Assembly (NCBI RefSeq): GCF_001809535.1
Contig: NZ_KV797917.1
Coordinates: forward strand, 1 to 36,712
Source: Aerococcus sp. HMSC062A02
GTDB taxonomy: Bacteria > Bacillota > Bacilli > Lactobacillales > Aerococcaceae
DNA: 36,712 bases
Direction: 5' to 3'
The notes under the pieces were generated by a model. It was not told where the DNA came from. It did not search any database and worked only from the letters and a program-made list of their open reading frames with translations. Numbering within the stretch: position 1 is the stretch's first letter; the number at the start of each line of letters is the position of its first letter. Positions 1 through 31,300 of the stretch are shown here, one piece after another. A program made the position numbers and the translations under genes.

Positions 1-121
1 ACGGCTGCAAGCCGAACGTTCCCTTTTGTGAAGAAGACCTATTTCTGCCAGCATGAACCCGACTATAAGGGGGTGTGAGACTTGGCGGTTAGCTTTTGTT
101 CGCTGGAGCCAGTTAGCAGTC
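1..121. repeat. Partial copy of a structured intergenic repeat (copy A)
   Basis: This stretch aligns by eye with 30261-30387 over about 120 bases. Shared blocks include a GGCT-loop-AGCC hairpin, a TTTTG-GAAGA block, AACCCGACT followed by TAA and a GGG run, then TGGCG, TTAGCTTT, CTGGA and AGCAG. The first hairpin stem differs between copies in a compensating way: CGGCT/AGCCG here, AAGGCT/AGCCTT in the other. Similarity stops near 121, in the middle of the second module of the full copy, so this copy is truncated there. Its left end lies outside the window. No credible gene lies in 1-165. The strand of any transcript is unknown. Confidence 0.6.
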
Positions 122-165
122 CATCCTGAAAGGCTTATTGCAGCCCTAGTAAAATTGAACAAAAT

Positions 166-215
166 AAAAGAGAATCTACACGTCACTAGTTGCTAGTGGG
201 TAGATTCTCTTTTTT
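166..215. terminator. Bidirectional rho-independent terminator
   Basis: Perfect 14-bp stem AAAAGAGAATCTAC (166-179) with its complement (200-213), enclosing a second CACTAG/CTAGTG hairpin. A T run follows on the plus strand, and a T-rich tract (TTTTATTTTG) follows on the minus strand. It starts directly after the stop codon of the minus-strand XRE regulator and also closes off transcription entering from the left. Confidence 0.85.
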
Positions 216-14340: not shown

Positions 14341-14425
14341 GCGGGTATGGCGGAATAGGCAGACGCGCTACCTTGAGGGGGTAGTGGGAGTAACTCCCGT
14401 GCAGGTTCAAGTCCTGTTACCCGCA
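14341..14425 (+). tRNA. tRNA-Leu (anticodon GAG)
   Basis: An 85-nt class II tRNA. The acceptor stem GCGGGTA pairs with TACCCGC and the discriminator base is A. The anticodon stem CTACC/GGTAG (14368-14372/14380-14384) encloses loop TTGAGGG with anticodon GAG at 14375-14377, reading CUC and CUU. A long variable arm of GGGAG/CTCCC type and the TTCAAGT T-loop are present. The 3' CCA is not encoded. A consensus promoter precedes it and a strong terminator follows, so it is a single-gene unit. Confidence 0.97.
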
Positions 14426-28189: not shown

Positions 28190-28831
28190 TTAGTCCACTT
28201 TCCGGGCGAGGTCGATGATGATCTCTGCCAGCTTGGGATTGCGGACGAGGAGGGGGCCGTGGAAGTAGGAGCAGAAGGTGTTCTTGTAGAGGCAGCCTTC
28301 TGTTTGGTCCTGGCCGTTATTGCCGAAACCGTTTTTGACTTGGCCCAGGGCTTGGACGCCAGGACCCAGATAGGTGCGGCCGGCGTGATTTTCATAGCCT
28401 TTAAGGGTCAGGTCAAAGCGTTCATTGTAGATCTCGATGTCTCCAATCAGACGGTTGGCTTCGGTTTCGGTATAGTAGTCAATCGCTCCTAAGCCTTCCA
28501 AACGCTCGTGTTGGGCATTGATATAGTAGTGGCCCAGAAGCTGGAAGCCGCCACAGATGCCCACAAGGACGCCGCCTGATTCAATGTATTGGGTCAGGGG
28601 CGCTTTTTTTGTTTGGATATCCTTAGCTACCAAAGATTGTTCATAGTCCTGGCCGCCGCCGAAGAAGACCAGGTCATAGGCTTCGGGATCGAAAGGATCA
28701 TTGAGGGAGACGAGGTCGGTTTTAACTGCTTCTCCCTTCTCCTTGGCCATATATTGGAGCATGAGGAGGTTGCCATTGTCGCCGTAGGTATTCATCAAGT
28801 TGCCGTAGAGATGGCAGATTCTGAGGGTCAT
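28190..28831 (-). CDS. gatD: Lipid II isoglutaminyl synthase, glutaminase subunit GatD
   Basis: Class I glutamine amidotransferase that supplies ammonia to MurT for amidation of the D-Glu residue of lipid II to D-isoglutamine. The 213-aa protein has the nucleophile Cys93 in GICGGFQ, His191 in YFHGPLL and the conserved FFGGGQD stretch. Its ATG overlaps the murT stop by four bases (ATGA), the expected arrangement of the murT-gatD operon and a sign of translational coupling. The amidation is needed for normal cross-linking in many Gram-positive cocci. Confidence 0.96.
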   Translation of the reverse strand: MTLRICHLYGNLMNTYGDNGNLLMLQYMAKEKGEAVKTDLVSLNDPFDPEAYDLVFFGGGQDYEQSLVAKDIQTKKAPLTQYIESGGVLVGICGGFQLLGHYYINAQHERLEGLGAIDYYTETEANRLIGDIEIYNERFDLTLKGYENHAGRTYLGPGVQALGQVKNGFGNNGQDQTEGCLYKNTFCSYFHGPLLVRNPKLAEIIIDLARKVD

Positions 28832-30186
28832 GCTTGCATCCGCTCCTTCACATAGCCCTCCGCAGCCAGGGCCCGTCTGAGTTCGAGCATGGCGGTATAG
28901 GTGGCTAAGATATAAACTTTCTGTGACTGTGATTCTTTAATGTATTTAATGAGACTGACCGCGTCTTCAACCGGGTCTAGCTGGTCCTTGTCAAAGCCAG
29001 CTACTACCAGGCGCTGTTTCAAGTCAGTGGCCCGCATGCCGGCATAGGCGGTGTCTTGAACCTTGTCGAGTTGGGCTAGGTCCTCGAAGTTGCCGTCCCA
29101 GATCCAAGAAATGTCTTGGCCATCAGCCGGCTGGTCGTTGAGGATGGAGATGAGGTCAAAATCATCTTTTTCGAGCTTGATCAGTTCAATGATTTGGTTG
29201 AGGCCAACGGGGTTCTTGATCAGGTTGATCCGGACCTCTTTGTCTTCAATCTGGATCGTTTCTTGCCGACCGAAGATCCGTTGGGCAGAGGCTAGGCCGC
29301 GCTTAATGGTCAAGTGGTCGAGGCCAAAGTGCTTGGCCACGGAATAGGCGGCTAGGGCATTGTAGACATTGTAGAGTCCGGCCACGGGAATGGTGTAGTC
29401 CTCGCCGTCAATCGCGAAGCTAGCCTGGTCTGGGGTCAGGTCGTGGATAGCCGTCACCGCATGCTGGAGCTCGGGGCGTTGGAAGCCGCAATTCGGGCAG
29501 TAGAAGTCACCCAGATTGGAATAAGTAATCATATGATAGTGGAGGATCTGTTCACATTTAGGGCAGATCACCCCATCGGTATTGTAGTGGGCTAGGAAGT
29601 CTTCTTCCTTATTTCCATTAGCGAAGCCGAAGTAGGCTCGTTCATTAGCTGTCTCTTTAGAAGAAAAAATAGGGGCGTCCCCGTTCAAGAGCAGGCGGGC
29701 TTGAGGCGTCTTAGCGGCCCCTTCTAAGATCAAGTCGTAAGTGGTATAGATCTCGCCGTAACGGTCCATCTGGTCGCGGAAAATATTGGTCGCAACAATT
29801 AATTCAGGTGTCACTTGGGCGGTGACATGGCGCAGGCTGGCCTCATCCACTTCGAGAATAGCAATTTTGTCTTGGCCTGACTTGGTCGAAGCCTGGCTCA
29901 CGAAGGTCGACGTAATGCCCTGGATCATATTGGACCCAGTAGGATTGGTCAAGACATGGGGGTAGACTTGCTTGAGGATATTGACCGCTAAAGCAGTCGT
30001 CACCGTCTTGCCATTGGTTCCTGTAATCAGCACAATGCGGTAGTCCTTAGCTAGCTCCTGTAAGACATCCGGATCGACTTTCTTGGCAATCTTACCAGGC
30101 AAACTCGATCCCCCTTTAGTAAAGGTATGGAGCCCCCAGTAAGAAGCCCGGCCAGCCAAAGCCGCCAATTGAGTTTTCAAACGCAT
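28828..30186 (-). CDS. murT: Lipid II isoglutaminyl synthase, Mur-ligase subunit MurT
   Basis: Catalytic partner of GatD. The 452-aa protein has a Mur ligase central domain with P-loop TGTNGKT (55-61), the ribbon of four cysteines typical of MurT (Cys208, Cys211, Cys230, Cys233) inserted in that domain, and the C-terminal MurT-specific domain (DUF1727). The ATG follows AGAAAGGA. About 300 bp of repeat sequence with strong structure lie just upstream (30211-30499) and would form a long leader if transcription starts near 30500 on this strand. A TATCAT box there could serve as -10, but this is uncertain. Confidence 0.96.
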   Translation of the reverse strand: MRLKTQLAALAGRASYWGLHTFTKGGSSLPGKIAKKVDPDVLQELAKDYRIVLITGTNGKTVTTALAVNILKQVYPHVLTNPTGSNMIQGITSTFVSQASTKSGQDKIAILEVDEASLRHVTAQVTPELIVATNIFRDQMDRYGEIYTTYDLILEGAAKTPQARLLLNGDAPIFSSKETANERAYFGFANGNKEEDFLAHYNTDGVICPKCEQILHYHMITYSNLGDFYCPNCGFQRPELQHAVTAIHDLTPDQASFAIDGEDYTIPVAGLYNVYNALAAYSVAKHFGLDHLTIKRGLASAQRIFGRQETIQIEDKEVRINLIKNPVGLNQIIELIKLEKDDFDLISILNDQPADGQDISWIWDGNFEDLAQLDKVQDTAYAGMRATDLKQRLVVAGFDKDQLDPVEDAVSLIKYIKESQSQKVYILATYTAMLELRRALAAEGYVKERMQA

Positions 30187-30210
30187 GGATAAATTCCTTT
30201 CTAATTTAAA

Positions 30211-30499
30211 GGGTGTGAGAGGATGCGGGAGAAAGGGACCTCTGGAGTAAAAAACCAGAGAAGGCTGAAAGCCTTCGACGGGCTTTTGCGAAGAGGAGCC
30301 CTTTATGCATCCTCGAACCCGACTGTAAAGGGTATGAAGGCTGGCGTTTTAGCTTTCCTTCACTGGAACAAGTCAGCAGAGCAGTCTAACAGACTGCGGC
30401 GGAGACTTATGAAGTGACAGGAAAGCTGCCAGACCGAACCCAACTAGGGTGTGAACCAGAGCGCTTTGTTCTTACTCCACTTCATCGGGTTTTGGACCC
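30211..30499. repeat. Modular structured repeat, full copy B (three stem-closed modules)
   Basis: Three consecutive modules each open with GGGT followed by TGA and close with ACCC. Module 1 (30211-30320): GAGGATGC/GCATCCTC outer stem with inner hairpins CTCTGG/CCAGAG, AAGGCT/AGCCTT and GGGCT/AGCCC. Module 2 (30330-30441): one long stacked hairpin with GGCTGGC/GCCAG-CC, AGCTTTCC/GGAAAGCT, CACT/AGTG, AGTC/GACT and GCAGTCT/AGACTGC. Module 3 (30447-30499): shorter, closed by GGGT/ACCC. Modules 1 and 2 are matched by 1-121, with compensating stem changes. The frame at 30223-30417 is not credible as a gene. Nothing else occupies 30187-30540. It fits no RNA family I know. Confidence 0.65.
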
Positions 30500-30558
30500 T
30501 GTCTGCTCCCTATGATACCATAATTTGAAGGGCCTAAATGTATAAATTTATGCAAACA

Positions 30559-30567
30559 TGTTATAAT
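30559..30567 (+). promoter_or_regulatory. Extended -10 promoter of the tdk cluster
   Basis: TGTTATAAT (TG, one base, TATAAT at 30562-30567) with a weak -35. The leader to the tdk start is about 125 bases and holds two copies of TGACTAAGTG and a CCGACT/AGTCGG pairing just before the ribosome site. Confidence 0.6.
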
Positions 30568-30697
30568 TTAAGCGTTCGAACTTCCCATCTTCTGCCAAGA
30601 ACTTGGGGGCAAATATTGACTAAGTGCCGACTGCCAAGTATGATTAATAAGGTATTTATCTGACTAAGTGAATAGTCGGGAAGGAATAGGTGGTATT

Positions 30698-31300
30698 TTG
30701 GCACAATTATATTTTCGCTATGGAGCAATGAACAGTGGGAAATCGATTGAAATTCTCAAGGTGGCCCACAATTATGAAGAACAGGCTAAGCGGGTGATCG
30801 TGATGACGAGCGCCGTGGATACCCGGTCCGGCCAGGGCGTGATTGCCAGCCGGGTGGGTCATGAGCGGCCTGCTGTGGCGATTGATGGAACCTTAAATAT
30901 TTATGACTATGTTGCTCGGGAAAACCAGGCAGAGCGTGTTTTCTGTGTCCTTATCGATGAGAGCCAGTTCTTGAGCGCTGACCATATCGACCAGTGCGCC
31001 CAGATCGTCGACGACTTGAATATCCCGGTCATGGCTTTTGGCTTGAAGAATGATTTTCAAAACCATCTCTTCACCGGTTCAGAACGGCTCTTGCTAGTGG
31101 CGGATAAGATTGAAGAAGTGAAGACCATCTGCTGGTTCTGCGAGAAGAAGGCGATCATGAATATGCGGGTCCATAATGAGGTGCCTTGCTATGATGGCGA
31201 CCAGGTGCAAATTGGGGGAAATGAATCCTACTATCCCGTTTGCCGTAAACACTACAAGCAACCGCCCATGCAGGACGGTAAGATTGCTAAGCGAGTATAA
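30698..31300 (+). CDS. tdk: Thymidine kinase
   Basis: Phosphorylates thymidine to dTMP in pyrimidine salvage. The 200-aa type II enzyme has the P-loop GAMNSGKS (9-16), the catalytic DESQF stretch and the zinc-binding Cys set (CWFCEKKA, then Cys and His near the C-terminus). I take the TTG at 30698 as start because the product then begins [16 protein letters not shown] as in the family, with AAGGAA and AGGTGG just before it. The GTG at 30668 would add ten residues and has no ribosome site. First gene of tdk-prfA-prmC-tsaC, a conserved Firmicute order. Confidence 0.93.

What the first reader, a model, noticed from the sequence alone, without database searches (positions are those of the whole stretch)
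30211..30499. Modular, multi-hairpin intergenic repeat with three GGGT...ACCC-closed units and a second, diverged copy at 1-121
Seen directly: three consecutive modules, each closed by GGGT/ACCC, with long nested stems (for example AGCTTTCC/GGAAAGCT and GCAGTCT/AGACTGC in module 2). A second copy 30 kb away shares modules 1 and 2 in part. The first hairpin changes on both sides between copies (CGGCT/AGCCG versus AAGGCT/AGCCTT), which points to selection on RNA or DNA structure. It matches no tmRNA, RNase P, SRP, T-box or riboswitch signature I know. It could be a structured non-coding RNA family, a non-autonomous mobile element, or a long murT-gatD leader when read on the minus strand.
Basis: partly seen in the sequence, partly recalled or inferred. 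Interest (0 to 1): 0.78.

Follow-up and report, generated by a model that had tools for sequence, protein, structure and literature searches.

The report
Stop-codon-anchored modular RNA hairpin repeats
The feature is one copy of a large repeat family, not found in the databases searched, whose ~119-base units fold into a conserved hairpin and sit, often in tandem, right after the stop codons of many genes in Aerococcus and related bacteria, which suggests an RNA element at the ends of messages.

Summary
The repeat is real. Window 30209-30325 and 30328-30446 are two full modules; 30447-30499 is a degenerate 5' fragment rather than a third module; 1-135 is the broken end of another array at a contig edge. 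The genome holds at least 100 full modules. Eighty-two modules share one hairpin with covarying helices (94.2% of cells paired, 28 of 34 pairs doubly changed) and near-fixed internal loops. No Rfam family matched. A covariance model matches 44 of 76 genomes of the family and 68 of 295 sampled from the order, and 4 of 398 sampled from the class that lie in other orders. Of 140 arrays with a sense ORF ending within 400 nt upstream, 89 start within 14 nt of its stop codon; antisense control 5 of 97. Between two close species 29 of 34 sites are shared but module number agrees in 8. Best reading: a 3'-UTR RNA element that spread as a non-autonomous repeat and acts on termination or decay of the upstream message; this last step is inferred by analogy with REP and BOX. 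The window copy is a minority case, between divergent murT and tdk.

The parts
30209..30325 (+). full module 1 (subtype with GAGGATGC/GCATCCTC P2 and AAAGGG/CCCTTT P3)
   Evidence: CM R1 107.1 bits, model 1-118; fold z -6.48
30328..30446 (+). full module 2 (subtype with P3 AGCTTTCC/GGAAAGCT)
   Evidence: CM R1 98.4 bits, model 1-118; fold z -5.31
30447..30499 (+). degenerate 5' fragment of a further module (AGGGTGTGA...) running into other sequence; GGGT/ACCC closure seen by eye only
   Evidence: no CM hit; tail differs from the orthologous site of G007; 5' fragments end many arrays
1..65 (+). 3' part of a module, cut by the contig start
   Evidence: CM R1 26.7 bits, model 54-118; window = G000 contig C15 from base 1
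71..135 (+). 5' fragment of a module ending the same array
   Evidence: nhmmer model 3-67, E 1.2e-6
167..215 (.). terminator-like hairpin (GAGAATCTAC/GTAGATTCTC plus T run) after that array, before the convergent ORF 214-525
   Evidence: read by eye; ORF; the crude scan did not report it
28828..30186 (-). murT, divergent gene on the element's 5' side (22 nt between)
   Evidence: NCBIfam NF045635 581.7 bits, below its 800-bit cut-off; Pfam MurT_C 113 bits over its cut-off of 25
28190..28831 (-). gatD, partner of murT
   Evidence: NCBIfam NF045636 292.2 bits, below its 400-bit cut-off; Pfam GATase_3 over its cut-off
30668..31300 (+). tdk, thymidine kinase, downstream of the array
   Evidence: NCBIfam NF003299 322.2 bits over its cut-off of 284

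Best explanation
A family of interspersed, often tandem ~119-nt elements that work as RNA in the 3' untranslated region. SHOWN: each full module is one long hairpin whose helices change by compensation while internal loops (GUGA/GA next to P1, GGA/GA next to P4) stay nearly fixed; most arrays with a called upstream gene lie on that gene's strand, and the first module commonly starts at or inside its stop codon; array sites persist between two close species while module number turns over. INFERRED: when the upstream gene is transcribed, the array folds directly behind the terminating ribosome and either slows termination and recycling (as reported for E. coli REPs within 15 nt of a stop codon) or blocks 3'-5' decay of the message, thereby setting output of the upstream gene; it spread as a non-autonomous element tolerated at that spot, and arrays grow, shrink and swap modules by recombination between copies. 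The mobilising enzyme is unknown.
For: 94.2% of 2785 cells paired, 28 of 34 pairs doubly changed, covariation 0.671 against 0.185 shuffled and at most 0.195 when slid; RNAalifold finds the same 34 pairs unaided; 26 of 34 pairs doubly changed among the 52 G000 rows alone. Loops: GUGA in 62 and GA in 78 of 82; GGA in 77 and GA in 82 of 82. G-U over A-C in stems 73:35, plus 44:0 at columns 42/91, so the sense strand is the one kept pairing. Orientation: upstream gene on the same strand in 47 of 55 clusters with a called upstream gene, of 62 clusters. Start within 14 nt of a sense stop codon in 89 of 140 versus 5 of 97 antisense; in 12 of the 140 the TGA of the module's own GTGTGA ends the frame, and 11 of 97 upstream proteins end in -RV or -RA. 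Spread: 44 of 76 and 68 of 295 genomes. In G201, units of hairpin plus own terminator-like hairpin stand where the relative G098 has a different terminator-like hairpin, at 2 of 4 sites aligned.
Against: No expression data. 28 of 168 clusters have no sense ORF end within 400 nt, and 51 of the 140 start farther than 14 nt away. The window copy lies between divergent genes. The reverse complement folds nearly as well, and strand-biased mutation could mimic the G-U excess. Upstream proteins are rarely shared between genera: 4 cross-genus pairs among 97 proteins, three at 33% identity or less, one (G112-G122) at 58%; this fits spread better than gene-specific regulation. ORFs were called mechanically and some may be spurious; orthologous sites of G000 and G007 are counted apart, so the 140 are not all independent.
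Confidence: 0.56

Rival explanations
1. DNA-level parasite: a MITE- or REP-like repeat whose hairpin is recognised as DNA (single strand or cruciform) by a transposase; its place behind stop codons is only where insertions harm least.
For: Near-identical dispersed copies in G201 and G051; terminator exchange at 2 of 4 aligned sites; upstream proteins rarely shared between genera; Y1 transposase (PF01797) occurs in 27 of 44 carrier genomes against 9 of 32 others (Fisher p 0.005; without genus g19, 16 of 32 against 8 of 31, p 0.07); edges TA-AGGG...GACTA resemble a TA-flanked insertion (by eye).
Against: PF01797 was not found in the high-copy genomes G000, G007, G006, G014, G016; starts cluster at the stop codon itself and only in sense; loops stay unpaired yet conserved, and G-U exceeds A-C. 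No clean target duplication seen in the sites printed. Other transposase families were not searched.
Confidence: 0.32
2. Neutral tandem repeat whose arms are kept matched by template switching or conversion between arms, with no selection.
For: Module turnover between G000 and G007; chimeric modules with mismatched arms exist (L007:1620-1736, L031:829-946).
Against: Arm correction would also repair the internal loops, yet GGA/GA and GUGA/GA stay mismatched and conserved; by eye the same loop words occur in L265 and L266 from other orders.
Confidence: 0.07
3. Cis-regulatory 5' leader (riboswitch or attenuator) of murT-gatD, read on the minus strand.
For: Ends 22 nt before the murT start codon; the minus strand also folds well.
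Against: 13 of 15 murT loci of the genus lack modules; copies lie behind many unrelated genes; G-U bias favours the + strand; a simple scan found no promoter-like site on the minus strand.
Confidence: 0.03
4. Integron-like attC or other cassette recombination sites.
For: Tandem ~119-nt imperfect hairpins in one orientation at a fixed site, with a residual 5' fragment at 3 of 5 sites where modules are missing.
Against: Modules abut with no genes between them; ends lack the RYYYAAC...GTTRRRY boxes (boxes recalled). No search for an integrase was made.
Confidence: 0.03

Closest known systems
BOX elements of Streptococcus pneumoniae
   Same: Modular, variable-number, highly structured repeats; 36 BOX lie at the extreme 3' end of a gene and encode its stop codon; some are transcribed (PMC3049150, passages seen).
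   Different: BOX is a composite of A, B and C parts; here every unit is the same closed hairpin type with near-fixed internal loops, and 89 of 140 arrays with a sense ORF upstream start within 14 nt of its stop. No BOX sequence was compared.
E. coli REP / BIME
   Same: High copy and extragenic; 446 of 4072 predicted E. coli REPs lie within 15 nt of a stop codon, where REPs are reported to stall ribosomes (PMC12306157, passages seen).
   Different: REPs are 20-40 bp palindromes, in BIMEs in alternating orientation (abstracts in listing), linked to RAYT transposases; here ~119-nt multi-helix hairpins, and no PF01797 match in five high-copy genomes.
MITEs such as RUP
   Same: Short, non-autonomous, hairpin-forming, near-identical dispersed copies in some genomes.
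   Different: No parent insertion sequence was identified and no clean target duplication seen; strong orientation and stop-codon bias.

Membership tests
Rfam family (any of 4227) | covariance-model score at or above the gathering threshold | tested here: not met
   window, 14 relative loci and L245: only tRNA hits or none; relaxed searches of 30100-30700, L265 and L266 gave only hits far below gathering
RAYT-associated REP | Y1 transposase (PF01797) in the carrier genome | tested here: inconclusive
   not found in the high-copy genomes G000, G007, G006, G014, G016, but present in 27 of 44 carriers against 9 of 32 non-carriers
RAYT-associated REP | 20-40 bp palindrome, alternating orientation in BIMEs | tested here: not met
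   modules ~119 nt; neighbours in tandem arrays share one strand, although G014 has opposed pairs
BOX (pneumococcal) | boxA/boxB/boxC sequence and order | not tested
   no BOX sequence was fetched for comparison
MITE | terminal inverted repeats and target-site duplication | tested here: inconclusive
   P1 GGGT/ACCC closes each module; sites without full modules keep a 5' fragment or are too diverged
Kink-turn | 3-nt loop followed by tandem sheared G-A pairs (recalled) | tested here: inconclusive
   tandem G-A opposition conserved, but the loop reads as 2 nt if U6-A120 pairs; geometry not testable here
Integron attC | R and L boxes flanking gene cassettes (recalled) | tested here: not met
   ends AAGGGTGTGA and GAACCCGACTA, no genes between modules; judged by eye

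The most novel reading that the evidence does not exclude
A class of modular RNA elements, old in Bacilli, that targets the stop codons (or terminators) of genes in sense, so that insertion is coupled to transcription or translation termination, and that then acts as an exchangeable 3'-UTR regulatory cassette whose module number tunes the upstream gene.
Probability: 0.22. Interest if true: 0.85.

Novelty: new variant of a known kind. Interest (0 to 1): 0.62.

Why it matters
If true, it adds a widely distributed structured RNA family that Rfam release 15 does not hold, and makes testable the old question whether interspersed repeats at gene ends (REP, BOX) are parasites or regulators: structure, strand and position can be separated here by natural variation, since the same sites carry different module numbers in two close species.

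Tried and rejected
Rfam at gathering and relaxed thresholds gave nothing useful. Insertion sequence or coding content: the ORF lists of L090 and L081 show no transposase-sized ORF over the element. Plasmids: two blastn queries found one record, the 592-kb Aerococcus tenax CP127381. Phages: one query, none. Viral contigs: 4 pattern hits gave no model hit; a second pattern gave none. RAYT: not found in five high-copy genomes, yet Y1 transposases are commoner in carriers, so not excluded. Clean empty site with target duplication: sought among the 5 of 34 orthologous sites without full modules in G007, not found. attC: rejected by eye on ends and lack of cassettes. Kink-turn: left open. Literature: no held paper has both 'Aerococcus' and 'intergenic repeat'; the listings show no description of this family; the library lacks most subscription journals.

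Limits of counts: genome CM searches scored at most 48 candidates a genome, 12 or 9, so copy numbers are lower bounds and weak carriers may be missed. One search used 331 of the 334 hits (left out: L015:42-93; L081 and L090, repeats of L116 and L099). Alignment A1 used 82 of the 93 non-redundant modules; 11, among them truncated or chimeric ones, were left out. Orthology: 37 of 43 G000 clusters had a usable flank; 34 of the 47 places listed were compared; N gaps and one contig end in G000 make module counts approximate. One search held only the first 2188 of 4400 letters: sites L099-L102 and most of L103. Carrier and Y1 lists were typed.

Full report
WHAT IS THERE. The window is contig C15:1-36712 of a 2.14-Mb, 49-contig genome, G000. 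The reported stretch holds two full modules, 30209-30325 and 30328-30446 on the + strand, followed by a degenerate 5' fragment to about 30499; the copy at the window's start is the broken end of another array. One blastn query listed 62 places in the genome. In the stretches of G000 that I fetched, a profile finds 89 full modules and 34 partial ones, and 12 further model hits listed lie outside those stretches; so about 100 full modules is a lower bound. Several contigs end inside a module (for example L017, L038, L039, L042, L043), as repeats break assemblies.

STRUCTURE. With 82 modules from G000, G007 and G016 aligned, RNAalifold finds, unaided, one long hairpin with 34 pairs, 28 of which change on both sides. 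With that structure named, 94.2% of 2785 cells pair against 67.8% after shuffling, and the covariation score is 0.671 against 0.185; sliding the partner by one column drops it to 0.195 or less. Relatedness inflates such shuffles, but within G000 alone (52 rows) 26 of 34 pairs still change on both sides with 94.9% of cells paired. While helices differ strongly between subtypes, unpaired parts hold: GUGA (62 of 82) facing GA (78 of 82) beside P1, GGA (77) facing GA (82) beside P4, a bulge of three or four bases that mostly opens with G, and the linker RACUA (75 of 82). Both loops oppose tandem G-A; I call this kink-turn-like only in a loose sense. In 33 core pairs G-U outnumbers A-C 73 to 35, and columns 42/91 have 44 G-U and no A-C, so the sense strand is the one kept pairing. 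Both window modules and a G201 copy fold with z from -5.3 to -6.5; the reverse complements of the window modules do so too (-6.3, -6.6), so folding energy alone does not tell the strand.

DISTRIBUTION. The covariance model R1 matches 44 of 76 genomes of the window's family (12 of 21 genera) and 68 of 295 sampled genomes of the order (32 of 75 genera). In 398 genomes sampled from the class, 7 match, four of them in other orders; two loci of these (L265, L266) show, by eye, the same loop words, L266 in tandem units of 123 bases. Named relatives came from one pattern scan: 37 of 50 genome stretches carry a model hit, all titled as Bacillota (Trichococcus, Jeotgalibaca, Fundicoccus, Desemzia, Atopobacter, Globicatella, Carnobacterium, 'Streptococcus sp. 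263_SSPC', one Sporosarcina MAG); the 13 without a hit are titled Proteobacteria, Planctomycetes and Actinomycetes. This split is a specificity control. The phage and viral searches made found no carrier; the plasmid searches found one record, a 592-kb Aerococcus tenax replicon.

POSITION. In 62 clusters of G000, G007, G016 and G014 the upstream gene is on the module's strand in 47 of 55 with a called gene; seven had none. With model-defined starts, 168 clusters from 31 genomes were examined; 140 have a sense ORF of 80 codons or more ending within 400 nt upstream, and in 89 of these the first module starts within 14 nt of the stop codon (69 within -3 to +6). The control, antisense ORF ends facing the array's far end, gives 5 of 97. 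In 12 the TGA of the module's own GTGTGA ends the frame. ORFs were called mechanically, and orthologous sites are counted in both species, so the numbers are not fully independent. Exceptions: the window copy has divergent murT on its 5' side and tdk beyond; 28 clusters have no sense ORF end within 400 nt, and 51 start farther away. Many arrays end in a 5' fragment of a further module, then other sequence; a crude scan found a terminator-like hairpin within 260 nt in 88 of 166.

DYNAMICS. Of 34 orthologous sites compared between G000 and G007 (flanks 81-98% identical), 29 carry full modules at the same point, yet the number of full modules agrees in only 8 of the 29 (G000 has gaps, so this is approximate), and subtypes differ at sites read by eye. 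Five sites lack full modules in G007; three of these keep just a 5' fragment. At murT-tdk, G000 has two modules and G007 one of another subtype; the 13 other murT loci of the genus have none within 1.5 kb. In G201 ten near-identical units, hairpin plus linker plus a terminator-like hairpin of their own, were read, 8 of 10 with a sense ORF end within 20 nt upstream. Of four sites aligned to G098, two show a different terminator-like hairpin in that place, one a partial unit (end of the hairpin, linker and terminator), and one was uninformative. So the element can take the place of a native terminator.

MECHANISM. Shown: RNA-type covariation, strand, stop-codon anchoring, turnover. Inferred: it acts in the message. 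The nearest precedent is the reported effect of E. coli REPs closer than 16 nt to a stop codon, which lower translation by stalling ribosomes (PMC12306157, passages seen; it cites an earlier study that I did not read), and BOX elements that encode the stop codon of 36 genes (PMC3049150, passages seen). A decay block by a 3' hairpin is an equal alternative. Among 97 upstream proteins, 4 cross-genus pairs match, three at 33% identity or less, which points to spread at many genes rather than control of one pathway. How it moves is unknown. PF01797 (Y1 transposase) was not found in five high-copy genomes, but across the family it occurs in 27 of 44 carriers against 9 of 32 others (p 0.005; 16 of 32 against 8 of 31, p 0.07, without the Y1-rich genus g19). 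Phylogeny is not corrected for; I count this for the DNA-mobility rival and moved the odds by 0.02.

NOVELTY. No Rfam family matches the window, 14 relative loci or L245 at the gathering score apart from tRNA, nor L265 and L266 usefully at a relaxed one. Listings and passages of PMC2864571 show no description; that library is partial. I file it as a new variant of a known kind, structured interspersed repeats, not as REP or BOX.

Noticed in passing
L022 1098-1285; tails of L015, L021, L149: Other tandem repeats follow some arrays in Aerococcus; in L022 units of ~41/82 bases (CAACCCACAAT...GGGTG type), by eye similar or different short units elsewhere.
   Followed up: no
query block about 979-1060, several further places in G007: Part of one G000 flank recurs at several places in G007, so another dispersed repeat lies near an array.
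   Followed up: no
L160-L165, L070: In G014 modules often occur as oppositely oriented pairs with short spacing, unlike the same-strand arrays elsewhere.
   Followed up: no
L007 1620-1736; L031 829-946: Chimeric modules whose 5' and 3' arms, by eye, come from different subtypes and no longer pair: marks of recombination between modules.
   Followed up: partly
L265, L266 (G476, G440): Relatives in other orders of Bacilli with the loop words GCGTTTA or AGCGTTTA and TTGGA/GAA kept.
   Followed up: partly
CP127381.1 (L119): A 592-kb Aerococcus tenax record called a plasmid carries housekeeping-type genes such as nadE near an array; it may be a chromosome part.
   Followed up: no
L240 / G046: A genome titled Streptococcus sp. 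263_SSPC seems to be G046, which the genome tool places in the window's own family (same hit position and score); probably misnamed.
   Followed up: no
window 14341-14425: A tRNA gene, the window's only Rfam match at gathering.
   Followed up: no
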